Positions 27,922 through 44,729 of a DNA stretch of 64,000 bases are shown in pieces (position 1 is the first letter of the stretch; the number at the start of each line of letters is the position of its first letter). The position numbers and the translations under genes were made by a program. The notes under the pieces were generated by a model, which saw nothing but the letters and a program-made list of their open reading frames with translations, ran no database searches and was not told the DNA's origin. Source of the stretch: Lepidurus packardi (lineage: Eukaryota; Arthropoda; Branchiopoda; Notostraca; Triopsidae); the NCBI GenBank assembly GCA_023053545.1, contig JAKZAN010000004.1:7564001-7628000 (forward strand). Direction: 5' to 3'.

Positions 27922-30900
27922 ATGCCTAAATGCCTAGTTTTGAGTTTATCAGCAAGCGCTGGTTTGGCTGGTTCTTTATTGTACTGGCTATGGAAAAGAC
28001 AGCAGGTAATTTAGCACCGTTACTGGTTTTAAATTGTTGCGACCCAAGTTCGATATCTGCCCGAGTTCGAGCTCGGGCAGCCCAAGTTCGTACTTGGGTA
28101 GACACTGAACTTGGGACGCGAGGCATCTGCCCAAGTTCGATGCTTAAAAGTATGAACTTTATATTTGACGTGAACATTTTGCAGAGGCGTGGCATTTTCC
28201 AAAAGAAGGGTGTAGCTTTGGATGTGACTTTATCTACTTGCAAACATGATCCGTTGGAGTCGCTGTTAATTGTATTTTCTCTCCGGTATAAAGCTTGTTA
28301 AAATTGTTATTCTTTCTTTATTCAACCCGTGAACAAAAATATAAACAAATGGTATCTCTTTTAACGGAAAAGATTTAGTGAACTTATGTGAAGTTACTTA
28401 ACTTAGACAGACACAGATTCATTTTAAATGTATTTTGTATTTATATATTTCATAGAAATCGAAGGATGCTTAAAACTTCTCATTCGACATCCAAACATAG
28501 ACCTTCGTTGTGTCAAATCTCCTACTTTCTATTCAAGTTTGTACTTGTGAATGTAACCCTTTCTTAGTGATTACACCGTTGCGTTTCATGTATTGTTCAT
28601 GCAGTTAAAATAGTGAATAAAGTGTTAATAAACTTTTTTGTTGTTGTTAAGAAAAGGAGACCGCGTTGCTCGGTCTCTTTGTATTCGCGTATTAAATAAA
28701 ATCGATACATCTGATAGAATAATAAACTTGATGAAATTAATTAACTGGTTTCTTTTTGTTCTGAAAATGCGATGAAAAAAGTGCTCTCTCTACATAATAC
28801 TGAACTTGAGCTACCCAGCATAAGTTCGAACTATTGGGTAAACATATAGCTCAAGAATTCCCCATAAGCGTCATGTTTTGAGAGAGTTTTTATAAGATTT
28901 AATAGCATACTTAACCTGTTGATGTAATAAATTAAGTGGTTTATCTTTGTGCTGTGAACATGCTATGAGAAGGGGCTTTTTCTACACAATACCGAACTCG
29001 GGTTCCCAAAAGTTAGAACTCTATCGGTAATAGCCCTATATTGTTCAAGAATTGAGACAATATTGTAAAATTTGATTGAATAAAAATCTTGCTTATGATT
29101 TTAAAAAGTTTGAGAGACCTTTCGTAAAATTGTATAAAATAATAAGCTTATTGATGTAATAAATTAAGTGGTTTATCTTTTTGTCGTGAACTAGCTGTGA
29201 ATAGTCCTTTCTCTACGCAATACTGAACTTGGGCTCCCCAAGTTCGAACTCGGGTAACCCGAGTTCGAACTCGGGGAGCCCAAGTTCAAGAAATCCCCAT
29301 AAGCGTCCTATTTTGAGAGAGTTTTTATAAGATTTAATAGCACACTTAACCTGTTGATGTAATAAACTAAGTGGTTTATCTTTTTGTCGTGAACTAGCTG
29401 TGAATAGTCCTTTCTCTACGCAATACTGAACTTGGGCTCCCCAAGTTCGAACTCGGGTAACCCGAGTTCGAACTCGGGGAGCCCAAGTTCAAGAAATCCC
29501 CATAAGCGTCCTATTTTGAGAGAGTTTTTATAAGATTTAATAGCACACTTAACCTGTTGATGTAATAAATTAAGTGGTTTATCTTTGTGCTGTGAACATG
29601 CTATGAGAAAGGGCTTTTTCTACACAATACCGAACTCAGGTTCCCAACTTTGAACTCTATCGGTTGCCCTATGTTCAAGAATTGCCTGCAAATGTCTTTT
29701 TTTAATATAATGGTGCAATATATACCAAATGTGTGTATATTTTCAAAAGTTTGGTTCACTCGGGTATGTTCACTAAATGGAATGCCTATATTTATTAAAA
29801 TTTCAATTGAACTTATGTAGCAGACAAAGCAAATAAATGCTTAGCATCGAAATTGAAAATATAATATTCGTATATGTGATGTAAAGGGAAGGGAAGTTAA
29901 GGGGATTCGTAAATGTGAAGAGTGCGCAGTGCATTTAAGGACAAGGATTTCCCCTATTGGTCGGAATATAACAATATAAGTACAGTCTATATATTCAATA
30001 TAAGTACTTGGGATGACCGTATTCCACTTCTCATTTTACTGTGGTCTTACTAAGAGCGCGAAGCTTGTTTACCATGGAAGGTATATCCTCCCATCTCCTG
30101 TGAAGGCGTTTGCTACCAATTTCGTTTTTTCTTTTCTTACAGGAAAATGCAATTTAATTGATAATTGTGAAGAGTGTCTTGGTGATGGCGACTGTGCCTT
30201 CATGGTTGGACCCAACGACGGGGACATCGTCTGTTTCAACGAAGATACGGGGCACCCGCTGGCACCCTACTATGCTCGTATTGAGCATTGCGGTAGTAAT
30301 ACATTTTCTTTTAATAGAATATGCTAAATTCGATTCTTTAGATGAAAGTACCTACATTCGAGTGGCTACAAGCCTCGTCGTTCTTGCAGTTTGTGTAATT
30401 TGCGTACTTGGAGTTATGGTTTACTGGTACGCTCTGAAATGCTTTAATTACAAAACTTTATCCTAATGATTTGTCGTTATAGTAAACGACGGCGTAATCG
30501 ACGGAATGAAATAGTATAGGAAAATTACTCATGCTTTTGATCCTCTTCATGCTTTTGTGTTTCCGGTTTTTGTAATCCAGTTTACGATTTGTAGTTTAAT
30601 CGGACATTGTATGCTTTTGATTTTTTCAATGGTTTTTATTGTGCTTTTATCATATTTTGTGATTTTTCTCAATTTTTATGTCTAAAAACTTTGAATACAT
30701 AAGTTAACCTTGTTTTTATCTATCTTGTCTGTTCGGTGAAATGTTTTAACAATTTACGCAGCTCCTTTTCCGAAATAAATTTTCCGTTTATTTACTCTTT
30801 TTGTTACCTCCTGACAACACAAATTTTACACGTTTTCCGAAGGTTTTGCCTTCGAAAGGCTTGGAAAGATACGGTCCGAAAGGGTTGGAAAGCAATGCTA

Positions 30901-33900
30901 TATCGGTTCTTCCGTCCCCCAGCAACCATCGTCGCATCCCAGCACTCAACCATCGTCGTTCTGATTTGAGGTCACACAGTGCAAACATTGTCGGCTTTTC
31001 AAAATTTAGCTTTCGTCGCTGTTTCCACAAGTTCTTTTAAAATTGCGAGCGAAATGCGATTTCGCTCGCCAATTTTGAAGACCGATTTTTAGCTCTGGGC
31101 GCAAGTACAGCTCGTCTGACCTGCTGCATGTGTGCTTCGGTTGTGTTGTGTTGAGTGTTGCTCTTGCCTCTATATTAATGTGATAGTGAGATTAAACTTG
31201 TCTTTAAGTTGTTGTCCTTTCTTTTTTAGTTATCATGTTGCTTGCAGTTTGCTAATTCTGCTCCTTACATTAAGTTTAAAATGCAGGGTCTTGGTCCTGT
31301 GGATCGCGAGAAATTTGATTTAGTGGTACGACAAAAAGCCAGAGTTCGCAACTCGGTGATTATCACCAATGAGAAATATCAGAAGATTCTTGCCGAATTG
31401 CATAAACAAAAAGAAGGGGCGACGTTAAGTAATGAAATAAGTAGAAAATTTATTTTGCAAACTGACGAAAGCGGTGAGGAATACGTTGCGTGCTTTACTG
31501 AGCCGTCCCAAAGTATGGCAAAAGGGTACGCGCGTCAACCTTTCAAGCGCGTCGTCCGGGCTGAAGAAATGTACGATTACATCAAGAAGGTGCACGAAAA
31601 TGACACGAATCATACGTCACCTAGGGCGGCGTTTCATTATGTAAGTTAATTAAGCAATATATCAAGCTTACCATACTATAACATTGTTTTAGGTGCAAGC
31701 GTATTACTATGGAGTAACCCGTTTTTTAGTTGAAGAATATACCCAAATGTGCCCGTACTGTGCAACCAAAAAAGTCCAAACAAATGCAACTCCCATGAGG
31801 CACGTGGTTGCCAGTGATGTCATGTTACAAGGACAGGTAAGTGGTCCTGAGAAGATACGGGGAAAAGCTTACAGATTTTATTTTTCTTTGGTAGCTCGAT
31901 CTGGTCCTTCTGCCGAAGAAGTCGGTTGTCGACGGGTATCGCTACATAGCCCAGTATGTAGACTTGGCGTCCCGTTTCCATATTCTATGGCCAATGCGCA
32001 AAAAAAATGGGACGGAAATCTATGAAGGCTTACTGAGATACGTGTTCAGCGTGTTTGGACCCCCAAAAAGGCTCCAGACAGATAATGGAACTGAATTTCG
32101 GGATCAAGTAATACTGTTAACATGAACATGAACGGATACCAAAGGAAGATTAATATTATTTCACAGGCGTTGGCAGCGGGCTTAAGTAATTGGCCCATAC
32201 AACATATCTTTGGAAGGGTACGACATCCCCAAAGCCAAGGAGTAGTTAAGCGGGCCAACGCTGAGCTGAAGAAATTGCTTCGTAACCGCACGCTGACCGA
32301 CAAGCAACAAAGAACCTGGCTCTACTGGCTGCCAGTAGTTCAGTGTAATATTCTTTTGATTAAACAATGAGGGATTTGGGTTTGTAATGGAATAATGTTG
32401 TATTTTATTTTCAGATCAAATGAATACGAGAAGATCACAACCCATTGGCCAACTATCTTCATTCGCGGTCATGTTTGGGAAAGCTCCGGTACCTTATGGA
32501 AGACCGGAACTAAACCCAACACCAGCTGCTGATTATACCACTACGGAACTGCCATTGGGTCCTGATTCAGAAGATAGCGAGGAAGACGGATCAGAACCTC
32601 TTCCTACTCTGTCAGCGGACTTCATTTTTCTAGATACCCTTGATGCTGTAAGTTTCTTCCAATGATGATGTTGTTCCTTCCAATGTTCCTGAGCTATCAC
32701 TTGAAAAATTATCTGTTTCGGCTCAGGAATTGGAACCTGAAGAGGACCCTTTTGCGCTAGCTTCCACGTCAACTGCCAATCCGGTCATCGAAGCCTACTG
32801 CGGTGGAGATGTGGTATGCCTGAAATCGCCGACTCAGGAGTTAATGGAACCTGAAGAGGACCCTTTTGCGCTAGCTTCCACGTCAACTGCCAATCCGGTC
32901 ATCGAAGCCTACTGCGGTGGAGATGTGGTATGCCTGAAATCGCCGACTCAGGAGTTAATGGAACCTGAAGAGGACCCTTTTGCGCTAGCTTCCACGTCAA
33001 CTGCCAATCCGGTCATCGAAGCCTACTGCGGTAGAAGTGGTGTGATCTGCACGGATGTTGAAGTCGCTGAAACGGACTCAGAGGTACTACCTGCGTGCAC
33101 TTTTCCACCAAGAAAACAAAATTACTGCCATGGTTCATCATATTTAATTTTTTTATGTATTTTTATTTTAGCTTGACGGTGTTGCACCACTAAACGAGGA
33201 TCGTCTGGCCATCTTCCGCTTTGTCCGCAGCCAAGCGGCAGCAGCATTATCCCATAGCCATGAAACTATGAATCAAAAGGCTGGGTTAAATCCGTGAAAA
33301 CGCACAACCAAGCTAGAAGTAGGGAACCACGTTACCGTGTTAATTCCCACCAAAGACCGGACAAGCTTGGAGAGCAGCCGCCTTCCAGGTATAGTCATCA
33401 GAGTGAGCGGTGATACATACCGAACCTACACCGTCCAGTCGTTCCACGGGGTACTTCGGGAGTCATATACGGAAAATCACTTAGAACTTTATGAACAGAA
33501 ATTTAAGCAACTCTACCATTGTAAAAGTTACGAAGTTATACCGCTAAGGACGGCGGTTCGACTTTTTTACGGCGGTAAAAGCAAAGTAGACATTTGCGAG
33601 TGTAAAAGTGATTGTGAAACTAAGCGGTGCAGGTGTAACCGAACGTTAAAAAATTGCACATCGGCTTGTCATGGTGGAAGGTACTGCCAAAACCAGGCGC
33701 TTTCTGAAACAAGTATGGCAGTTACACAATTATACTTTCAAGCTCTGAGGTTTAAAGTAAACGAAGTGATCGGCTCCGCATATAACCTTGCTGGTAATTT
33801 CTTCACTTTGTTTTGGGGCGAAGTGGGTAAGGTTTTGTTTTTCTTTTAGGAGATGTGAACTCTGACGATTCGAACGACTATTGCAAACCTGAATATCACG

Positions 33901-36900
33901 AACCGTACAGATCCATTCCGGTAGATGAAATGCAGGTGTTGTCGGAGCAAGGACTACAATATCGTTTGAAAGTCTCTGAAGACCATTTTTGGGATCAAGC
34001 TGGTAAGCACATAAATTATTTAAGAGAGATACAAGGCTTAAAGTCCCGACTTATTTATTTATGATCCAGATGCGACTTCTTGTAGCTGCCGTAAGATGTG
34101 TTTGAAAAAATTTTGCAAGTGCATGCAGGCCTCACGGAGATGTACCGAACTTTGCCATGGCGAACAAGCTTGCAACAATGCCGAAGCACGAGAATTAAGT
34201 GAGTTGCAAATGAATATAACAATGTCAAACTTATTCTGCGGTACAGAACATCAAGCAAAAAAATCTTCGAATGGGTGTGACTGCATTGAAGGCTGCGATG
34301 TGGCAGAAGATTGTTCCTGTCGAGCATTCTGTGATATGGAATGCACTTGCAGCAAGAACTGTTCAAAAAGTAAATCAATTTTGTGAATATATCATTTAAT
34401 CCCGTTCCATACAACAATATATAATTACATGTAGGGAAAGGCCTCCCAACCCAGAATAACCGAATCATGTGTGACTGCACGGAGTCATGTATAAACAGTA
34501 AGGAATGTGAATGCAAGAAGGCTGACATTCCGTGTTGGTCGGCTTTGTGCCATAACGGAAGGACTTGTGATCTTATCGATGAGAACATGGGTAAGTTTAT
34601 TACCATACTGCTGCAAAGAAAAACGCGAAGATGACTACTCTAATTATTCAAAACAGAAACACAAGCGGGACCACGCGATGACCAGTCAGCGATTCAGTCC
34701 GCTGAACCACAATTCACTGATGCAGACATGGGTACGCATTTTCATTCTTCCTCCTAAATTGCTGATTGATTTTTACTTTTCAATCATTTAAGCAGTCAAC
34801 GAGGAGGCTATCCCTATGGAAGACGAACCACAGCCCTTAACTGAGGATGATTTATTTAAAAAATTCAACTGCCAATGCAAAGATAATTATTGCGCACCAA
34901 AATTCTGTCCTTGTCGAACGACCGTTAATTTGCTGGATCCAACTGACCTCTCCCGTACAATAAAATCTCTTCGATGCAGCACGACATGTCATAGAGGACG
35001 ATTATGTTCAAACCAAGTTGTACGAAAAGGTAATTTTATTGAAGAATTCAAACTTACCCGATTAAGATTTAATTACTTTTTGCTCGACAGTTACTAATAA
35101 GTTGGAGACGCTTTTTCATTCCACGAAACTCAAGCATTTACGCACGGTGCTACCGTCGTTATATGCTGCATATGCATGGATTCAGGCAAACATGCATCAC
35201 TTTGAGGAGCATGTTACCATCCCCTACGTAAGGTATTCAATGGCACAAATTCCTCACCCTAAAATTCCTTTTATAGTTGGAACAAAAATGGAAATTAAAC
35301 AACAAAATGGAAAAGCGTATTAAGGAAACGGGGGCCTTGGATTACCCCACTGTAATCCTGGATCGTGATTTGGATGATTACTGGTACCGCTATAGAATTA
35401 TTGCTCACACCCCGGATGATTTAGAAATTCTGCGCGATGCAAAGATCTGTCTTCGTTGGGCTTCCAATGCTGTGACAATTGAAGCTTCGACTAACCGAAG
35501 TCCATACAAATTGCTCGAGTATCAGGTAGAAAACAAGACATCTCTGCTATAACCTAACCTAAACCATTACTTTTCGGCAGCTAGCGATGGATTCCAAATC
35601 TAAGGCTGGGAAGCAGCAGTCGTCTCATGCTACAACTGTCCTAAATTGGGCCGTAACACAAAAGGAACAAGGCAATCGCACAACGGTACGTGCGACCAGT
35701 TTTAAACATCCTTCGGTTCCGGCGTCGAGAAAATTGCGAGCCGGACCACTAAAGTTTGAAAACATGCTGCCTACAGAAAAGACGCACTTAGTGTTATCGT
35801 GGCTTCTGAAGGAATCGAGTCTGGACAAAGGAATTAAAAAACTAGAAAAGGCCGACAATAGCGATCTAAAATTAGATTCCCGGGCTATCTCGGATGGAGT
35901 TCTTGACCAGCGGGTTAACAAAGAATTTAACCGAGTATATACGTACCTCACACCGCAAGCCAAGATTACCGTAAAAAAGCTCATCGCAGAAAAGCGCGGG
36001 AAAAAGCTATTTTGCTGTCCTGCATGCAGTCTACCGGCGAAAAACAAAACTGTACAGTGTGACCGATGCTTGTCATGGTTTCATTACCTTTGTGCAACGA
36101 ATTTTCACATGGCGGAGCACAAGGATAAAGACTGGTTTTGTGGAACTTGTGGAAACAGCGACGAAAGCTAAATTTTGAAAAGCCGACAATGTTTGCACTG
36201 TGTGACCTCAAATCAGAACGACGATGGTTGAGTGCTGGGATGCGACGATGGTTGCTGGGGGACGGAAGAACCGATATAGCATTGCTTTCCAACCCTTTCG
36301 GACCGTATCTTTCCAAGCCTTTCGAAGGCAAAACCTTCGGAAAACGTGTAAAATTTGTGTTGTCAGGAGGTAACAAAAAGAGTAAATAAACGGAAAATTT
36401 ATTTCGGAAAAGGAGCTGCGTAAATTGTTAAAACATTTCACCGAACAGACAAGATAGATAAAAACAAGGTTAACTTATGTATTCAAAGTTTTTAGACATA
36501 AAAATTGAGAAAAATCACAAAATATGATAAAAGCACAATAAAAACCATTGAAAAAATCAAAAGCATACAATGTCCGATTAAACTACAAATCGTAAACTGG
36601 ATTACAAAAACCGGAAACACAAAAGCATGAAGAGGATCAAAAGCATGAGTAATTTTCCTATACTATTTCATTCCGTCGATTACGCCGTCGTTTACTATAA
36701 CGACAAATCATTAGGATAAAGTTTTGTAATTAAAGCATTTCAGAGCGTACCAGTAAACCATAACTCCAAGTACGCAAATTACACAAACTGCAAGAACGAC
36801 GAGGCTTGTAGCCACTCGAATGTAGGTACTTTCATCTAAAGAATCGAATTTAGCATATTCTATTAAAAGAAAATGTATTACTACCGCAATGCTCAATACG

Positions 36901-39900
36901 AGCATAGTAGGGTGCCAGCGGGTGCCCCGTATCTTCGTTGAAACAGACGATGTCCCCGTCGTTGGGTCCAACCATGAAGGCACAGTCGCCATCACCAAGA
37001 CACTCTTCACAATTATCAATTAAATTGCATTTTCCTGTAAGAAAAGAAAAAACGAAATTGGTAGCAAACGCCTTCACAGGAGATGGGAGGATATACCTTC
37101 CATGGTAAACAAGCTTCGCGCTCTTAGTAAGACCACAGTAAAATGAGAAGTGGAATACGGTCATCCCAAGTACTTATATTGAATATATAGACTGTACTTA
37201 TATTGTTATATTCCGACCAATAGGGGAAATCCTTGTCCTTAAATGCACTGCGCACTCTTCACATTTACGAATCCCCTTAACTTCCCTTCCCTTTACATCA
37301 CATATACGAATATTATATTTTCAATTTCGATGCTAAGCATTTATTTGCTTTGTCTGCTACATAAGTTCAATTGAAATTTTAATAAATATAGGCATTCCAT
37401 TTAGTGAACATACCCGAGTGAACCAAACTTTTGAAAATATACACACATTTGGTATATATTGCACCATTATATTAAAAAAAGACATTTGCAGGCAATTCTT
37501 GAACATAGGGCAACCGATAGAGTTCAAAGTTGGGAACCTGAGTTCGGTATTGTGTAGAAAAAGCCCTTTCTCATAGCATGTTCACAGCACAAAGATAAAC
37601 CACTTAATTTATTACATCAACAGGTTAAGTGTGCTATTAAATCTTATAAAAACTCTCTCAAAATAGGACGCTTATGGGGATTTCTTGAACTTGGGCTCCC
37701 CGAGTTCGAACTCGGGTTACCCGAGTTCGAACTTGGGGAGCCCAAGTTCAGTATTGCGTAGAGAAAGGACTATTCACAGCTAGTTCACGACAAAAAGATA
37801 AACCACTTAGTTTATTACATCAACAGGTTAAGTGTGCTATTAAATCTTATAAAAACTCTCTCAAAATAGGACGCTTATGGGGATTTCTTGAACTTGGGCT
37901 CCCCGAGTTCGAACTCGGGTTACCCGAGTTCGAACTTGGGGAGCCCAAGTTCAGTATTGCGTAGAGAAAGGACTATTCACAGCTAGTTCACGACAAAAAG
38001 ATAAACCACTTAGTTTATTACATCAACAGGTTAAGTGTGCTATTAAATCTTATAAAAACTCTCTCAAAATAGGACGCTTATGGGGATTTCTTGAACTTGG
38101 GCTCCCCGAGTTCGAACTCGGGTTACCCGAGTTCGAACTTGGGGAGCCCAAGTTCAGTATTGCGTAGAGAAAGGACTATTCACAGCTAGTTCACGACAAA
38201 AAGATAAACCACTTAGTTTATTACATCAACAGGTTAAGTGTGCTATTAAATCTTATAAAAACTCTCTCAAAATAGGACGCTTATGGGGATTTCTTGAACT
38301 TGGGCTCCCCGAGTTCGAACTCGGGTTACCCGAGTTCGAACTTGGGGAGCCCAAGTTCAGTATTGCGTAGAGAAAGGACTATTCACAGCTAGTTCACGAC
38401 AAAAAGATAAACCACTTAGTTTATTACATCAACAGGTTAAGTGTGCTATTAAATCTTATAAAAACTCTCTCAAAATAGGACGCTTATGGGGATTTCTTGA
38501 ACTTGGGCTCCCCGAGTTCGAACTCGGGTTACCCGAGTTCGAACTTGGGGAGCCCAAGTTCAGTATTGCGTAGAGAAAGGACTATTCACAGCTAGTTCAC
38601 GACAAAAAGATAAACCACTTAGTTTATTACATCAACAGGTTAAGTGTGCTATTAAATCTTATAAAAACTCTCTCAAAATAGGACGCTTATGGGGATTTCT
38701 TGAACTTGGGGCTCCCCGAGTTCGAACTCGGGTTACCCGAGTTCGAACTCGGGTTACCCGAGTTCGAACTTGGGGAGCCCAAGTTCAGTATTGCGTAGAG
38801 AAAGGACTATTCACAGCTAGTTCACGACAAAAAGATAAACCACTTAGTTTATTACATCAACAGGTTAAGTGTGCTATTAAATCTTATAAAAACTCTCTCA
38901 AAATAGGACGCTTATGGGGATTTCTTGAACTTGGACTCCCCGAGTTCGAACTCGGGTTACCCGAGTTCGAACTTGGGGGGAGCCCAAGTTCAGTATTGCG
39001 TAGAGAAAGGACTATTCACAGCTAGTTCACGACAAAAAGATAAACCACTTAATTTATTACATCAATAAGCTTATTATTTTATACAATTTTACGAAAGGTC
39101 TCTCAAACTTTTTAAAATCATAAGCAAGATTTTTATTCAATCAAATTTTACAATATTGTCTCAATTCTTGAACAATATAGGGCTATTACCGATAGAGTTC
39201 TAACTTTTGGGAACCCGAGTTCGGTATTGTGTAGAAAAAGCCCCTTCTCATAGCATGTTCACAGCACAAAGATAAACCACTTAATTTATTACATCAACAG
39301 GTTAAGTATGCTATTAAATCTTATAAAAACTCTCTCAAAATAGGACGCTTATGGGGATTTCTTGAACTTGGGCTCCCCGAGTTCGAACTCGGGTTACCCG
39401 AGTTCGAACTTGGGGAGCCCAAGTTCAGTATTGCGTAGAGAAAGGACTATTCACAGCTAGTTCACGACAAAAAGATAAACCACTTAGTTTATTACATCAA
39501 CAGGTTAAGTGTGCTATTAAATCTTATAAAAACTCTCTCAAAATAGGACGCTTATGGGGATTTCTTGAACTTGGGCTCCCCGAGTTCGAACTCGGGTTAC
39601 CCGAGTTCGAACTTGGGGAGCCCAAGTTCAGTATTGCGTAGAGAAAGGACTATTCACAGCTAGTTCACGACAAAAAGATAAACCACTTAGTTTATTACAT
39701 CAACAGGTTAAGTGTGCTATTAAATCTTATAAAAACTCTCTCAAAATAGGACGCTTATGGGGATTTCTTGAACTTGGGCTCCCCGAGTTCGAACTCGGGT
39801 TACCCGAGTTCGAACTCGGGTTACCCGAGTTCGAACTTGGGGAGCCCAAGTTCAGTATTGCGTAGAGAAAGGACTATTCACAGCTAGTTCACGACAAAAA

Positions 39901-42900
39901 GATAAACCACTTAGTTTATTACATCAACAGGTTAAGTGTGCTATTAAATCTTATAAAAACTCTCTCAAAATAGGACGCTTATGGGGATTTCTTGAACTTG
40001 GGCTCCCCGAGTTCGAACTCGGGTTACCCGAGTTCGAACTCGGGTTACCCGAGTTCGAACTTGGGGAGCCCAAGTTCAGTATTGCGTAGAGAAAGGACTA
40101 TTCACAGCTAGTTCACGACAAAAAGATAAACCACTTAGTTTATTACATCAACAGGTTAAGTGTGCTATTAAATCTTATAAAAACTCTCTCAAAATAGGAC
40201 GCTTATGGGGATTTCTTGAACTTGGGCTCCCCGAGTTCGAACTCGGGTTACCCGAGTTCGAACTTGGGGGGAGCCCAAGTTCAGTATTGCGTAGAGAAAG
40301 GACTATTCACAGCTAGTTCACGACAAAAAGATAAACCACTTAATTTATTACATCAATAAGCTTATTATTTTATACAATTTTACGAAAGGTCTCTCAAACT
40401 TTTTAAAATCATAAGCAAGATTTTTATTCAATCAAATTTTACAATATTGTCTCAATTCTTGAACAATATAGGGCTATTACCGATAGAGTTCTAACTTTTG
40501 GGAACCCGAGTTCGGTATTGTGTAGAAAAAGCCCCTTCTCATAGCATGTTCACAGCACAAAGATAAACCACTTAATTTATTACATCAACAGGTTAAGTAT
40601 GCTATTAAATCTTATAAAAACTCTCTCAAAATAGGACGCTTATGGGGATTTCTTGAACTTGGGCTCCCCGAGTTCGAACTCGGGTTACCCGAGTTCGAAC
40701 TTGGGGAACCTAAGTTCGGTATTGTGTAGAAAAAGCCCTTTCTCTGCGCAAAACAACAGAACGCAAATCAAACATCTGACCTTCACAGACAGTCGCCAAC
40801 GTAGCATAGAGAAACTCGACACCGCAATGCTAAAATTCATCAAAGAAATGCAAACAAAACGAAACGACGAAAATAGACAAATCAAAATTGAACTGGACGC
40901 CATTAACAGTACCTTGAGACACCTAACATTGAGATACCTAAGAGACACTAATGAAGGCCATTTCATACGAAGATTCAACCCCCAACTTAATTCCGAGGAA
41001 AAAACGGGGAATCCTTAACGGTGGAGGTGAAGTCTTGCGCTGGCTTTTTGGCACCCTTAGCAGCAAAGATCTAGAAGACATTAACCGAAAATTCAGCAGG
41101 ATAACAAAGGACAATAGAATGCTGTATCATTTAGAAGAACAACAGGCTACATTACTAAACGGCACGTACCTGCAGGTCCGGAAAAATGTGGACGCTATTT
41201 CAAAAATTACGAAAGCAGTGAGTAGCCTTGCCAGTAGTGTTGAAGACCTCGAAGCTGTGATTTCAGAATTTGGAGATTTTTATGCGTTTACGTGGAATTT
41301 TGCTCGAAAATTGGACAACGCTTATCATACCCTTGGTACCATTATACTTTGGTTACACCAAAACGTTAATAACATGAACACGGGCTTGTCAACAATAGCG
41401 TCAGGACGACTTTCACCAAACATAATTCCTCCAACAGAGCTATGGCAAATTCTTCAAGAAGTAAGCCGCTACCTATCCCGCAACTGGGTCGTAACAAAGG
41501 CGGCAGAACCAGGGAACATGTGGACCCATTATCAGGAATTCCGGGTGCGTTCAGCAGCAACACTCCAAGGCACACTGAAAATCTTCGTGGACATACCACT
41601 ACAAGATTTAAGTACTACACTTGATCTATATCAACTAATAGCTCTACCGACTTTTTTACCTGGAGGGAATTTCTCAGTTGACACAATACGATTATCTCGG
41701 CTTAACAAGCGACAGACAGTCGTATGTTGAATTTACTTCCTCAGAATTGGCAGAAACTTGTACAACAGGATCAGCGAAGATTTGCTCCACCAGTAAAGCC
41801 CTCACGCGTGGCATCCATGGGCGCTCTTGCTTGTATGCTGCGTTCTTTAATGATACTGTCTTGATTGCGGAATTGTGCAAAAAGACAGTCCGAATAGACG
41901 GCAGGCCATGGTGTCATTACCTTGGGAAAAACAAATGGATCTATTCAATACCTCAACCAATGCAACTTACAATATCTTGCCCAGAAGAACGACGTCCAGA
42001 AGCCTACAGCAAGAGTTCCAGTGTCCAGCTAAATGATGTGGGCATCTTAGAACTACCGGATGGCTGCTCAGCTCACTCCGGGTGGTGGACCTTTCCGGCA
42101 AACTTGGAAAAACTTAATAATTATACAATCCACACCAGCACTATAGACGTAAAAAATATCTTTTCCGATTTAGATTTTAACTTACCATATCCTGTTGTGC
42201 AACTCCCAAAACCAAATCATCAAGGATTAACGCAAATTACCAAAGACATTTTGGAAGACCTACAGAAAAAAGTACATTAGACCCAAATTGGGAAATCAGA
42301 TACAAGTTGTTCGAAAAAGCAGTTCAAGATTCAAAACCTATTTTTAATAATCTGAGTGACGAAATTTCGTATGTCTGTCTGACCCAATTTTTACTATACT
42401 GTTGGGCTGTTGTGATTACTGCCGCCACAGTATTTGCCCTCCCTGCCATCATCTATATGTTTTTGAGGCTTAGATGGCTGACAAGAAAACAAATTGAACT
42501 ACTTCGTCTCTGGCAAACCTTACTTGATGTTGATGATAAATAAGTAGGGTATATATAGTGAATTATAAATTCCAACTTGTAATTCAATATTATTATTATA
42601 ATAACCATACCTGGATATCCAACTTCTGCATGCTATACGTTTGAGCTACTGTTATTATATGAGTGAACATTAGTTACCAACAAACTTTTCAAGTACTGTA
42701 CCCCAAAAACAATAATAAAAATAATGATACATATAAATTGAGGAGTGACAAGCACAACTCTACTCTTTAGTGATGAAAGTCGACACAAGTGGCGTAAACT
42801 GCAATTCTAAGTAGCCCCTCCTAGATGCAACGCCTCCAAGTAAAGTAGTCTACACTCCACTGTAAACAAAACTTGTCATGTAAACTTCGAAGATAAATAT

Positions 42901-44729
42901 TTAAATAAGTTGTGAAATTACTGCCAAGGTAATAATGCCAAATTAAAGATAACTAAACCAATAAACTGTATTGTTAATTTCACTTGTAAAAACTGTGTAG
43001 GTGTGGAGAACTTTACTGTCAAATATTGCTACCCGAGTTCGAACTTGGGTTACCCGAGTTCGAACTCGGGTAGAGGCTCTACTTGGGTCGCAACAAAATC
43101 AAGATACAATTAAGCAATATTTACGTATGTGTTTTCACACTTAGTCGCCAAAGAGAAACTGTATCGATATAGTAAAGAAAAAACTGGTCACACTGGAAAT
43201 AATTGTGCCAGCGTATGCTGTTCCCTTATTAATTGGTAAAAGGGGGGAAGTTATTCAAGCGATTGAGGAACAAACTGACACGAAAATAATGTTCAAAGGC
43301 TCAGGTATATAAAACTTTAGATTTGTATTATATTCCAATTACTCTATCTTTATTTAAAAGGCTCGAATAGAAGATGCGTAATCTACGGATTGAAAGAAGA
43401 CGTACCTTTGGCTCAGATGCTAATAACGGAATCTGTCAAAGATCTACCACTCATCCAATCAATAGATCTTTGGCTTCCGGAGGCATGGATAGTCAAAAAT
43501 ACAAAATTCTAGCAAACTTACCCTGACCTTTCTAATAATTTCAGGCCGTTTGCGCTAAAATCTCAGAGCGTAATACCCTAAAATCTCTTACCTGGAACTC
43601 ACGTGCGAGAATTATCATAGATAAAGAGAAGCTAAACCAACCAACAAGTAATTATAATTACTTATTAATTACAATCACGCAACTTTAACTTCTTGGAAAT
43701 CGCAGGATCGCCTAAGAAGGTTATCCTACAAGGAACGCCACAACAACTGAGCGTAGTTCAAGCGTTATTACAAGACAAAGTATCTGATTTAGAAGCTCAA
43801 GACAGGTTGCGAAGTACGTCCAATGATTATCTAACGTCTCCTCCATCGAGATCGGTATGCAATCGTACACCATTTAAATAGGCAGTATTTAATGAGATTA
43901 ATCTTATAACCAGGCTAGAGTAGTCAATGAACAAAGCAACGTTGAACCGTTGGTTGCAACGAATTCCGATGGTTTTGCAGAGACATATATTTGCTCGGTG
44001 GTCAATCCTTGCAAATTTTATGCCCAACTAGTCGGTCCTCATGCCATATTACTGGACAGATTAGTTCAAGACATGACAGAGTTTTACGAGCAGGACGAAA
44101 ACAAGGAGTTGTACACTCTTCCAATCAACGTACTTACTTATTCTTCAAAATGAACTTAAAATTTCAGAAAGTCCTTAGGTGCAAAGTAATGACATAATCG
44201 CTGCCAAATTCTCTCATGACGGTTCGTGGTACCGGGCGAGAGTCCAGTCTATCAATGGCGATCTCAAACCCGCTAGCCAAATCGTGTTATTTTTTGTTGA
44301 TTTTGGCGATATGGAGCTCTGTGACGATCTCACTCACGTTTGCAAATTAGCACCCCAGTTCGAAACTCTGAAATACCAGGCTATTGAATGCTGCTTGGCA
44401 AATGTTCAGTCCAAGTATAATTATGTAGTATTATCGATTCTTTTGATTCTAAGGTTTTGAATTTTAGAAACGGGGATTGGTCTGAGCAAGCTATTGCACG
44501 TTTCGAAGAGCTGGTCTATAACGCTCAATGGAAAATTATCATGGCCAAAGTAAACGGGTATAATGAAGACCAAATCCCTCTTGTTGATTTAGTGGATACT
44601 ATCGGATCTCAGGTACAATAAGCAATAGAGGTTCAAGATTGCATTGTAATAACGTGGCATACAAAATAGGATGAGCACGTGGCCGCCGCACTGGTTGGAG
44701 AAGGTTTTGCAGAGTGGACTGATACGTAG
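27922..44729 (+). CDS. papi: Papi/TDRKH-type Tudor and KH domain protein, split by a 15-kb intronic element
   Basis: Scaffold of the piRNA pathway. In insects and mammals it sits on the outer mitochondrial membrane and binds PIWI proteins and piRNA intermediates during 3' trimming. Nine exons: 27922-28005, 43145-43304, 43361-43482, 43545-43647, 43706-43854, 43914-44129, 44179-44414, 44468-44612 and 44670-44729; they sum to 1275 nt (424 aa). Exon 1 encodes an N-terminal membrane anchor (SAGLAGSLLYWLWKRQQ). Exon 2 has KH1 with a good GxxG loop (LLIGKRGEVIQAIE). Exons 3-5 hold KH2, whose GxxG is lost. Exons 6-8 form an extended Tudor domain (NPCKFYAQLVGP, FSHDGSWYRARVQ, VLFFVDFGDMELCDD). Exon 1 and exon 2 join in phase 0. 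Intron 3 appears to use a GC donor (43,483). Intron 1 contains the mobile element at 28,035-43,095. Confidence 0.85.
28031..28034. repeat. left target-site duplication (AAAT)
   Basis: AAAT immediately precedes the TGTTGCGACCC terminus of the large element. The same four bases follow the right terminus. Four bp fits Ginger-type integrase transposons. Confidence 0.75.
28035..28090 (+). repeat. left terminal inverted repeat of the large element
   Basis: TGTTGCGACCCAAGT, a 10-nt unmatched spacer, then palindrome CCCGAGTTCGAGCTCGGG (28,060-28,077) and CCCAAGTTCG. It mirrors 43,040-43,095 with identical spacing. Confidence 0.75.
28100..28650. other. left subterminal stretch of the element
   Basis: Open frames on both strands span the terminus (27,926-28,301) but do not look like real genes. 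A hairpin, GAGACCGCGTTGCTCGGTCTC-like, lies near 28,656-28,678. Otherwise AT-rich and featureless. Confidence 0.4.
28780..29690 (+). repeat. left-arm minisatellite, about five blocks of ~200 bp
   Basis: Each block has a TTGATGTAATAAA-TAAGTGG segment, CTACGCAATACTGAAC or a CTACACAATACCGAAC variant, then a palindrome cluster with TTCGAA centres and CCCCATAAGCGTCCTATTTT. Two blocks (29,150-29,540) are near-identical; the flanking ones are the variant type with reduced palindromes. Confidence 0.85.
30074..30466 (+). CDS. small PSI-like Cys-rich/transmembrane protein, left-arm copy
   Basis: Three exons inferred from splice signals. 30074-30080 starts at accATGG. 30143-30292 encodes KCNLIDNCEECLGDGDCAFM, then more Cys residues. 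30342-30466 encodes DESTYIRV, a single hydrophobic helix (VATSLVVLAVCVICVLGVMV) and a short tail ending NYKTLS. The C-x5-C-x2-C-x5-C spacing recalls PSI domains; a PSI-like ectodomain followed by one helix is the layout of PTTG1IP-type proteins, but I see no signal peptide. The second intron would be 49 bp, short but possible. An identical inverted copy lies at 36,711-37,103. It may be captured host exons; the function is unknown. Confidence 0.5.
31281..33540 (+). pseudogene. Ginger-like integrase/transposase, two inactivating lesions
   Basis: DDE integrase of the gypsy/Ginger type, of the sort also seen in KRBA2/SCAND3-like host proteins. Exon 1 (ATG 31281 to 31640) is an N-terminal region. 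An HHCC zinc finger follows (VHENDTNH ... MCPYC). The catalytic core starts after an intron: QLDLVLLPKK (first Asp) and LQTDNGTEFRDQ (second Asp). The third motif reads HPQSQGVVKRANAEL, with Lys (AAG, about 32,248-32,250) where the catalytic Glu belongs. Next is an acidic linker with three 38-aa repeats (32,732-33,060), then an exon from 33,172. An in-frame TGA at 33,295-33,297 interrupts it, before a GPY/F-like module (VGNHVTVLIPTKDR ... LPGIVIRV). The splice near 32,343-32,414 is uncertain. The enzyme should be catalytically dead as written. Confidence 0.8.
32732..33060 (+). repeat. three 114-bp in-frame coding repeats
   Basis: The unit encodes 38 residues beginning EPEEDPFALASTSTANPVI and containing YCGGDVVCLKSPTQEL. 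Two complete units and most of a third (from 32,732, 32,846 and 32,960) show no visible substitutions until the third diverges at CGRSGV. Acidic linker of the transposase, probably a recent expansion. Confidence 0.9.
33541..35583 (+). CDS. CXC (tesmin/TSO1-like) zinc-cluster region of the transposon protein
   Basis: At least four Cys-rich segments on successive short exons: ICECKSDCETKRCRC ... CHGGRYCQN (33,590-33,700); SCSCRKMCLKKFCKC ... CHGEQACNN (34,078-34,180); CDCIEGCDVAEDCSCRAFC with MCDCTESCINSKECECKK ... CHNGRTC (34,275-34,575); and NCQCKDNYCAPKFCPC ... CHRGRLCSNQ (34,868-35,020). The CxCxxxC...CxC...C pattern is that of CRC/CXC domains, which bind DNA in LIN54 and related proteins. 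After the last CXC come LYAAYAWIQANMHHFEEH and an exon with YPTVILDRDLDDYWYRYR, which I do not recognise. An in-frame 58-bp intron (about 35,526-35,583) links it to the PHD exon. Probably the C-terminal half of one long integrase-CXC-PHD protein. Confidence 0.7.
35587..36171 (+). CDS. C-terminal PHD-finger exon of the transposon protein
   Basis: 194 codons are open from the first Met, but a CAG acceptor just upstream (35,581-35,583) suggests this is an internal or last exon joined to ...YKLLEYQ. The N-terminal part is basic and unrecognised. The C terminus is a PHD zinc finger: CCPACSLP, then VQCDRCLSWFHYLC and DWFCGTCG. PHD fingers usually read histone H3 tails, which could guide integration or persistence in chromatin; that role is inference. 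The last ~10 codons (from 36,143) lie inside the right inverted arm. Confidence 0.75.
   Translation: MDSKSKAGKQQSSHATTVLNWAVTQKEQGNRTTVRATSFKHPSVPASRKLRAGPLKFENMLPTEKTHLVLSWLLKESSLDKGIKKLEKADNSDLKLDSRAISDGVLDQRVNKEFNRVYTYLTPQAKITVKKLIAEKRGKKLFCCPACSLPAKNKTVQCDRCLSWFHYLCATNFHMAEHKDKDWFCGTCGNSDES
36711..37103 (-). CDS. small PSI-like Cys-rich/transmembrane protein, right-arm copy
   Basis: Same sequence as 30,074-30,466 on the opposite strand (coordinates mirror around 67,177). Start, splice sites and the encoded protein are the same. Both copies are transcribed inward, towards the integrase core. Because both copies look intact and identical, either would make the same product. Confidence 0.5.
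37500..40745 (-). repeat. right-arm minisatellite, 203-bp unit with higher-order repeats
   Basis: The cagtattgcg landmark recurs at 37,749, 37,952, 38,155, 38,358 and 38,561 (exactly 203 bp apart), then 38,786 (+225) and 38,991 (+205), with further copies to about 40,710. Most units carry CCCGAGTTCGAACTCGGG plus a second CCCGAGTTCGAACTTGGG. Longer units have an extra palindrome inserted. A variant block with AATAAGCTTATTATTTT occurs at about 39,061 and again at 40,352, so a 1,291-bp higher-order unit is duplicated. Confidence 0.92.
40745..42543 (+). pseudogene. F-like viral envelope (fusion glycoprotein) gene, broken
   Basis: Resembles the F-type fusion proteins shared by baculoviruses and insect errantiviruses (gypsy-type Env). 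A furin-type site RKKR at about 41,000 is followed by the hydrophobic GILNGGGEVLRWLFG, the typical fusion-peptide position. A long ectodomain follows with spaced Cys. Near the end (42,370-42,470) a hydrophobic membrane anchor is followed by a short basic tail. The frame changes near 40,960, between about 41,650 and 41,700, and again near 42,270, with a stop at 42,278-42,280, so no single intact reading frame exists. There is no gag or polymerase beside it and no LTR. It lies inside the termini of the large element, either as captured cargo or as a relic of an older insertion. Confidence 0.7.
42550..43030. other. right subterminal stretch of the element
   Basis: AT-rich, with no gene seen. It does not mirror the left subterminal stretch beyond the terminal repeat itself. 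Confidence 0.4.
43032..43095 (-). repeat. right terminal inverted repeat of the large element
   Basis: Read inward from 43,095: TGTTGCGACCCAAGT, a 10-nt spacer, palindrome CCCGAGTTCGAACTCGGG (43,053-43,070), TAA and CCCAAGTTCGAACTCGGG. It mirrors the left end with the same spacing. Confidence 0.75.
43096..43099. repeat. right target-site duplication (AAAT)
   Basis: AAAT follows the ...GGGTCGCAACA terminus, matching 28,031-28,034. Confidence 0.75.

What the first reader, a model, noticed from the sequence alone, without database searches (positions are those of the whole stretch)
28035..43095. Undescribed 15-kb Ginger-like transposon with exact limits
The ends are TGTTGCGACCCAAGT in inverted orientation, with a palindrome at the same 25-bp offset on both sides and AAAT flanking duplications. 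Removing the element restores a phase-0 Papi intron of 74 bp, in the size range of neighbouring introns. Known Ginger elements encode a gypsy-like integrase and leave 4-bp duplications. One this large, with 2-4 kb internal inverted arms, a CXC-PHD protein and extra genes, is not something I know of.
Basis: partly seen in the sequence, partly recalled or inferred. Interest (0 to 1): 0.88.

Follow-up and report, generated by a model that had tools for sequence, protein, structure and literature searches.

The report
Jumping gene with virus-envelope-like gene
A 15-kb jumping gene sits inside an intron of an animal gene; it is one of a family with a retrovirus-like integrase, and almost every paired copy also carries a mostly decayed gene resembling a virus envelope fusion protein, which is unusual for this kind of element.

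Summary
The 15-bp ends occur 47 times in the host assembly, 38 of them forming 19 inverted pairs; 17 of 19 pairs have exact 4-bp target duplications. Removing the window copy restores a 74-bp GT-AG intron in a KH/Tudor (Papi-like) gene. The predicted transposase is a multi-exon retroviral/gypsy-like integrase (rve E=3.4e-12). It groups with CXC-tailed integrases, apart from Gypsy. It is Ginger-like but fails the target-site rules of Ginger1 and Ginger2.

First, a Baculo_F (envelope fusion) gene lies in 18 of 19 pairs, including short pairs without integrase. Second, the integrase block lies between ~1.9-kb inverted arms and occurs in both orientations; two 12,831-bp copies are flip isomers. 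Third, 36 AGTTCGAACT palindromes occur inside the element and none in 48.9 kb of flank.

Caveats: the window copy is dead (third catalytic acid lost, stop in exon 7). Envelope frames are interrupted in all 10 integrase-bearing copies assessed. My searches showed no description of an envelope-bearing Ginger-type transposon.

The parts
28031..28034 (.). left target-site duplication AAAT
28035..43095 (+). whole element (left end to right end), 15,061 bp
28035..28104 (+). left TIR: first 15 bp identical to the right end, 56 of 70 bp overall; first palindrome 25 bp inside
28063..29480 (.). left palindrome array (units AGTTCG[AT][AG]CT)
29109..31034 (+). left inverted arm, 99% complementary to 36143-38068
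30142..30324 (+). small Cys-rich ectodomain-like exon of a putative single-pass membrane protein (predicted by eye); the membrane-spanning piece is in the ORF at 30158-30466
   Evidence: found twice, in opposite orientation, at all 11 integrase places
31281..31640 (+). transposase exon 1 (predicted)
31693..31836 (+). transposase exon 2 (predicted; zinc-finger-like CxxC)
31895..32107 (+). transposase exon 3 (predicted; first two catalytic acids)
32167..32344 (+). transposase exon 4 (predicted; third catalytic acid, replaced in this copy, kept in 7 of 7 other fetched copies)
32415..32647 (+). transposase exon 5 (predicted)
32727..33083 (+). transposase exon 6 (predicted), acidic, with a 114-bp coding tandem repeat
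33172..33756 (+). transposase exon 7 (predicted): SH3-like part and CXC-like motif; one stop codon in this copy; the open frame at this place is longer in 10 of 10 other copies matched over its whole length
34042..34386 (+). Tesmin/TSO1-like CXC ORF (TCR E=2.8e-4, just under Pfam's cut-off)
34792..35097 (+). further Cys-rich, CXC-like ORF (no Pfam match; read by eye)
35581..36171 (+). ORF with C-terminal PHD finger (Pfam 4.3e-6; nearest solved: TAF3 PHD, 2.6e-7)
   Evidence: 13 places in the genome
36143..38068 (-). right inverted arm, carrying the second copy of the small membrane-protein exons (36853-37035)
37702..40710 (.). right palindrome array, tandem units mostly 203 or 224 bp
40942..41730 (+). 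envelope-fusion-like ORF, first part (Baculo_F 9.2e-9)
41642..42280 (+). envelope-fusion-like ORF, second part, other frame (Baculo_F 2.5e-6)
42181..42543 (+). envelope-fusion-like C-terminal part with membrane anchor
43026..43095 (-). right TIR
43096..43099 (.). right target-site duplication AAAT

Best explanation
It is one copy of a young, multi-copy family of cut-and-paste-type DNA transposons. Shown: shared TIRs, 4-bp duplications, a retroviral/gypsy-like DDE integrase gene that is nearly identical between copies, and short copies that share the ends but lack the integrase. Inferred: the transposase, through its zinc-finger-like and CXC parts, binds the TIRs and the TTCGAA-centred palindromes, excises the element, and joins it 4 bp apart at weakly palindromic targets of the type TG-GNNC-CA. 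The TAF3-like PHD finger may steer it to active chromatin. Short copies would be moved in trans. The inverted arms recombine, flipping the integrase block (the two isomers are shown; the mechanism is inferred). The family also carries an envelope-fusion gene and a small membrane-protein gene. The envelope gene is a resident of this family, because every match of 80% identity or more that the search returned lies in a copy. It is decaying, so recent copies most likely spread without it.
For: 47 exact termini against 0 for the control, 19 inverted pairs. Exact 4-bp TSD in 17 of 19 pairs; an older relative, C3:2804842-2811814, also has one (AGCA). Symmetric target preference: T at -2 in 14/17, G at 0 in 11/17. 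rve 3.4e-12 and PFV integrase 1.3e-10. Integrase exons 98.9-100% identical where aligned over their full length among fetched copies. Tree 91/87 with CXC-tailed integrases, Gypsy on the other side (below the tool's own mark for firm branches). Anatomy constant across integrase-bearing copies; integrase block in both orientations. Envelope gene in 18 of 19 pairs; Baculo_F 1.8e-20 on one natural uninterrupted ORF. Palindromes 36 inside, 0 in flanks, 129 places genome-wide with control 0.
Against: 2 of 19 pairs lack an exact 4-bp duplication (one of them adjoins an assembly gap). The window copy itself cannot be active; 3 of 11 integrase places have a frameshift in exon 3. No transcript, excision or polymorphic empty site was looked at. 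CXC binding to the palindromes is not tested: the CXC piece has no credible match in PDB sequences (best E=0.29). Of 21 envelope-bearing places (18 pairs, 3 single ends), only 1 reads through to the membrane anchor in one frame. In the 7 copies whose upstream part I read, the F2-like stretch lies in another frame than the F1-like ORF, with no in-frame signal peptide. dN/dS is uninformative because copies differ by under about 1.5%.
Confidence: 0.85

Rival explanations
1. The envelope gene is a mere passenger: a piece of an envelope-bearing retroelement or endogenous virus landed in one ancestral element and has hitch-hiked since, never serving the transposon. (This concerns the role of one gene and can hold together with the best explanation.)
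For: Every integrase-bearing copy whose envelope was assessed (10 of 10) has it interrupted. An older relative of the ends (C3:2804842-2811814) shows no envelope match (80 of 124 candidates scored). The same genome has a Gypsy element with a Baculo_F envelope (L060).
Against: No RT ORF or LTR-like partner was seen beside it: full-length matches of the adjacent 550 bp are all in copies, and matches elsewhere are diverged (75-89%) and nearly all partial. Its best distant relatives are only about 31% identical. It is kept in all 18 pairs larger than 213 bp.
Confidence: 0.55
2. The envelope gene was, or in some lineage still is, used by the element: an enveloped, virus-like DNA transposon or a transposon moved between hosts by its own fusogen.
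For: Cleavage-site-like RQKR/RKKR-G followed by a region conserved with other Baculo_F envelopes and a C-terminal anchor; a second, putative membrane protein is encoded in both arms at all 11 integrase places; near-universal presence in the pairs.
Against: No capsid, polymerase or packaging gene recognised in the ORFs scanned, outside nested elements; decay of the envelope in integrase-bearing copies; no in-frame signal peptide seen in 7 copies read, though one (L050) has a hydrophobic stretch in the F2-like frame.
Confidence: 0.12
3. Two elements combined: an outer envelope-bearing short element into which an integrase-bearing module flanked by inverted arms was inserted.
For: The short copy read whole is left end - array - envelope - right end without arms or integrase; long copies are the same plus arm - integrase - arm.
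Against: The outer TIRs carry the duplications, so the integrase acts on the outer ends; duplications at the module's edges were not sought. Short copies are equally explained as internal deletions, the usual origin of non-autonomous forms (recalled).
Confidence: 0.2
4. A solo Gypsy/errantivirus or Polinton derivative, not a DNA transposon.
For: Gypsy-like integrase and an errantivirus-type envelope.
Against: TIRs instead of LTRs, no RT in the shared parts, predicted introns in the integrase, tree; no polB or capsid match and 4-bp, not 6-bp, duplications (Polinton duplication length recalled).
Confidence: 0.03

Closest known systems
Ginger DNA transposons (Ginger1 and Ginger2/Tdd; Bao, Kapitonov and Jurka 2010, PMC2836005; abstract and Results section read)
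   Same: TGTNR ends, TIRs of tens of bp, 4-bp target duplication, gypsy-like DDE integrase, introns; one listed Ginger1 has a PHD finger; short non-autonomous copies exist.
   Different: Listed Ginger elements are about 2.6-7 kb. Here 12-15 kb without nested insertions, no OTU/Ulp1 found, a CXC tail, no CCGG/CCGT (0 of 17) and almost no TATA (1 of 17) targets, inverted arms, palindrome arrays, an envelope-fusion gene and a putative membrane-protein gene.
CXC-tailed integrase proteins (P0001 from the rotifer Didymodactylos carnosus, P0002; the KRBA2/SCAND3 type of vertebrates is recalled, not tested)
   Same: Same order: zinc-finger-like part, DDE core, SH3-like part, C-terminal CXC motif; same group in the tree, 91/87.
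   Different: 27-28% identical over the alignment; whether they lie in TIR elements was not tested.
Envelope-bearing Gypsy elements (errantivirus type), one of them in this genome (L060)
   Same: Baculo_F-type envelope gene; 27% identity over 387 aligned residues.
   Different: They have RT and RNase H; there the envelope gene follows pol. LTRs of L060 were not looked for.
Sesarmid nimaviruses with a Ginger2-like integrase (PMC10871703, passages read)
   Same: Ginger-type, intron-containing integrase plus TIRs in an integrating element that also encodes envelope proteins.
   Different: 265-285-kb endogenous DNA viruses inserted in (AT)n repeats; this element is 12-15 kb with no virus core gene recognised.
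Teratorn (piggyBac-herpesvirus fusion; PMC10175614, passages read)
   Same: Cut-and-paste DNA transposon joined with viral genes including an envelope glycoprotein.
   Different: 180 kb with a whole herpesvirus genome and a piggyBac transposase.

Membership tests
Ginger superfamily | Gypsy/retrovirus-like DDE integrase as transposase | tested here: met
   rve 3.4e-12, PFV integrase 1.3e-10 on the spliced product of copy C3:2963373; third acid missing in the window copy
Ginger superfamily | TGTNR termini, TIR about 40-300 bp | tested here: met
   TGTTG; 15 bp perfect, 56 of 70 bp
Ginger superfamily | 4-bp target-site duplication (5 bp in TDD-4/5) | tested here: met
   17 of 19 pairs
Ginger superfamily | H2C2 zinc finger | tested here: inconclusive
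   one H and the CxxC columns align with P0001/P0002, but Pfam Integrase_H2C2 does not match
Ginger1 | CCGG or CCGT/ACGG target | tested here: not met
   0 of 17
Ginger1 | OTU or Ulp1 C-terminal domain | tested here: not met
   no Pfam match in 8 ORFs between 30158 and 36168 or in the spliced product
Ginger1 | YPYY and GPY/F motifs | tested here: inconclusive
   not seen by eye in the product; no profile was available
Ginger2/Tdd | RTATAY target (TATA duplication) | tested here: not met
   TATA in 1 of 17; preference instead TG-GNNC-CA
Ginger2/Tdd | Clusters with named Ginger2 transposases | not testable with these tools
   no named Ginger1/2 sequences at hand; the tree has only proxies
Polinton/Maverick | protein-primed polB and capsid genes, 6-bp duplication (recalled) | tested here: not met
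   no such Pfam match in the ORFs scanned; 4-bp duplications
Gypsy/errantivirus | RT/RNase H and LTRs | tested here: not met
   no RT in the shared parts; RT only in nested insertions of other copies

The most novel reading that the evidence does not exclude
A DNA transposon that acquired a class I envelope fusogen, and possibly a second envelope protein, and thereby became an enveloped, virus-like agent able to pass between cells or hosts: a DNA-transposon parallel to how Gypsy elements became errantiviruses.
Probability: 0.1. Interest if true: 0.92.

Novelty: new variant of a known kind. Interest (0 to 1): 0.6.

Why it matters
Envelope capture is the classic step that turned LTR retrotransposons into viruses. 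A cut-and-paste transposon family in which 18 of 19 paired copies carry a fusogen-type gene would show that such capture is not limited to retroelements or large virus-like elements, and makes the question testable by looking at relatives. The family also pairs an element-encoded CXC protein with element-specific TTCGAA palindromes, and has flip isomers of its integrase block. Both are uncommon anatomical features that can be checked in other genomes.

Tried and rejected
Homologues of the envelope ORF in the protein database: none at E<=1e-3 among 6,980 candidates; none in IMG/VR by its close-relative patterns. Transposase homologues: 4, then 13 with an alignment; several of the 13 are Gypsy or other integrases. 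dN/dS on the envelope: uninformative. A LIN54-type CXC match in PDB sequences: none, so binding to TTCGAA rests on recall of LIN54's CHR site and on the palindromes alone. A nucleoprotein guess for the gene beside a distant envelope locus (L059): no Pfam match and no significant PDB match, so it stays a guess. The first element maps by blastn missed the envelope in several copies, probably because the palindrome arrays crowded the hits; the segment-wise map replaced them. A first set of exon coordinates was off by one or two bases and was corrected. Host species: not identified. Structure prediction was not run.

Full report
Observation. The 15-mer TGTTGCGACCCAAGT occurs in the window only at 28035 (+) and 43081-43095 (-), where shuffles give a mean of 0.12 even with two mismatches allowed. 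Both ends are flanked by AAAT. Taking out the element and one AAAT leaves a 74-bp GT-AG intron, and the frame runs in phase 0 from an exon ending WKRQQ into a KH exon. The KH and, further on, Tudor domains are confirmed by Pfam; the name Papi/TDRKH is from recall. Each end has an 18-bp palindrome 25 bp inside it.

A family, not a single insert. In the host assembly (108.6 Mb, 344 contigs) the 15-mer occurs 47 times, against 0 for the pattern read backwards. With two mismatches allowed the count rises to 245 against 177 for the control, so weaker matches mean little. Thirty-eight of the 47 form 19 inverted pairs from 213 bp to 18.95 kb; 9 are single. For all 19 pairs the flanks were read: 17 have an exact duplication of 4 bp and none has more; one has 3 bp (C2:7191717), one none (C2:7991759). 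The last lies beside an N gap, and its left flank GTGC equals the flank of the next right end at C2:8015212, so it is probably part of a composite. Aligned on the element's orientation, the 17 targets show a symmetric preference TG-GNNC-CA (T at -2 in 14/17, G at -1 in 11/17, G at 0 in 11/17, C at +4 in 10/17). A relative with ends 81-86% alike (C3:2804842-2811814) also has a 4-bp duplication, AGCA, so the lineage has probably been in this genome for some time.

Transposase. Seven exons between 31281 and 33756, predicted by eye from splice sites, give a protein with a zinc-finger-like part, a DDE core, an acidic repeat, an SH3-like part and a CXC-like motif. The product of copy C3:2963373 matches rve at 3.4e-12 and prototype foamy virus integrase at 1.3e-10. 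A Tesmin/TSO1-like CXC ORF and a PHD ORF follow; the PHD is nearest to that of TAF3 (2.6e-7). Whether these last ORFs belong to the same protein is not settled. The two best database relatives, P0001 (a rotifer) and P0002, have the same order including the CXC tail. In a 15-row tree they group with our protein (91/87), while all 8 Gypsy integrases lie on the other side (87/79). Neither value reaches the tool's mark for a firm branch, and our row and several others are long branches, so only this coarse placing is claimed. Integrase exon 3 occurs at 11 places (9 of the 19 pairs and 2 single ends), 8 in full frame and 3 with a frameshift. The window copy has lost the third catalytic acid, which all 7 other fetched copies keep, and has a stop in exon 7; over that place the open frame is longer in the other 10 full-length matches. 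The window copy is therefore not autonomous; copies with open exons 1-7 exist.

Anatomy. Ten other large fetched pairs and 3 short ones (one whole, two in part) were mapped segment by segment. The window and the 7 integrase-bearing pairs follow one plan: left end - palindrome array - arm - integrase/CXC/PHD - inverted arm - array - envelope gene - right end. The short pair read whole (C2:5592176, 3.6 kb) lacks arm and integrase. The integrase block stands in either orientation relative to the ends. In the window and C3:6607576 it points the same way as the envelope gene; in the six other mapped integrase-bearing copies, and by coordinates in C5:8288566 and C6, it points the other way. C3:6607576 and C3:8525756 are both 12,831 bp and differ by this flip. 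Recombination between the arms is the simplest reading. Both arms are present at all 11 integrase places, and the two arms of one copy carry the same version of the small membrane-protein exon, as expected if they exchange sequence. The three large pairs without integrase contain nested elements: Helitron (C1:4385836, C3:2910473), LINE (C3:2910473) and Gypsy (C1:7275376).

Palindromes. AGTTCGAACT occurs 36 times in the element and 0 times in the other 48,939 bp of the window. CCGAGTTCGAACTCGG occurs at 129 places in the genome, with a control of 0; the 50 places listed lie in copies or inside a single end (the other 79 were not listed). TTCGAA is, from recall, a form of the site bound by the CXC protein LIN54. 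The element's own CXC motifs make binding to its ends plausible, but no match to a CXC structure was found, so this step is inference.

Envelope gene. Three overlapping ORFs at 40942-42543 match the Baculo_F-type envelope: the first two by Pfam, all three by the search. A natural single ORF of 541 aa in copy C1:7275376 matches at 1.8e-20. It has an RQKR-G cleavage-like site, a region after it shared with other Baculo_F envelopes, nine cysteines and a C-terminal hydrophobic anchor. Of the 94 matches returned (80 of 124 candidates scored), those of 80% identity or more lie in 18 of 19 pairs (not the 213-bp one) and at 3 of 9 single ends, and nowhere else. Other Baculo_F-like genes in the genome are 23-34% identical over their longer matches (up to 43% over an 87-residue piece). 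One of two inspected follows RT and integrase of a Gypsy element (L060); the other (L059) has no RT among the ORFs of the 6 kb read. So the gene belongs to this family of elements. Against an active role: only 1 of the 21 envelope-bearing places reads through to the anchor in one frame; all 10 integrase-bearing copies assessed are interrupted; in the 7 copies whose upstream part I read, the F2-like stretch lies in another frame, though one (L050) has a hydrophobic stretch in that frame; and copies are too alike for a test of selection.

Mechanism. Shown: TIRs, 4-bp duplications, a DDE integrase family, short relatives with the same ends, flip isomers. Inferred: excision and joining in trans by the transposase, end recognition through palindromes, chromatin steering by PHD. 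Most likely the envelope gene was acquired by the younger subfamily and is now decaying. That the acquisition came after the split from the older relative rests only on the lack of an envelope match there, whose counts are lower bounds.

Known or new. The Ginger paper (abstract and Results section read) lists elements of about 2.6-7 kb with CCGG/CCGT (Ginger1) or RTATAY (Ginger2) targets. This family shares the superfamily traits but neither target rule, and has no OTU or Ulp1 match. The listings of searches (20 of 4,266 papers listed) showed no envelope-bearing Ginger-type transposon; the nearest cases are the very large Teratorn and nimavirus-Ginger2 elements (passages read). A review of giant transposons (passages read) mentions envelope genes in LTR elements and Teratorn. 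A paper on a Ginger1-derived gene of crustaceans has no mention of Ginger2, CXC or Daphnia in its text (term search). Preprints, apart from a few held in PMC, and most subscription papers are outside this library. I rate it a new variant of a known kind.

Noticed in passing
L059 (G000:C5:11282000-11288000); further envelope matches at C5:11270043, 11313925, 11320316, 11340607, 11404310: A 718-aa Baculo_F-type envelope ORF beside a 474-aa ORF without Pfam or significant PDB match; part of that ORF is repeated in the 6 kb read, and similar envelope matches recur along C5:11.27-11.40 Mb. Possibly a cluster of endogenous virus-like or mobile elements.
   Followed up: partly
L009/L010, L021/L022, L011/L012: Copies of the element serve as landing sites: nested Helitrons, a LINE and a Gypsy element with RT and integrase.
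   Followed up: partly
C2:7991759-8015212: Left end and second right end share GTGC, with another right end and an N gap between: probably two elements in tandem or nested within one insertion.
   Followed up: partly
C2:834788-840149, C2:690347-692343, C4:2246251, C4:4276249, C5:5851998: Older relatives of the element's end sequences (68-89% alike over parts), two of them near a weak 35-residue match to the integrase gene (53%, E about 0.008): perhaps an older layer of the same lineage.
   Followed up: partly
C3:9732620-9732832 (L041): A 213-bp miniature copy with both ends and a GAAC duplication: a MITE of the family.
   Followed up: yes
window 32731-33072: 114-bp coding tandem repeat (38 aa) in the acidic part of the transposase, three units here and two in copy C3:2963373.
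   Followed up: partly
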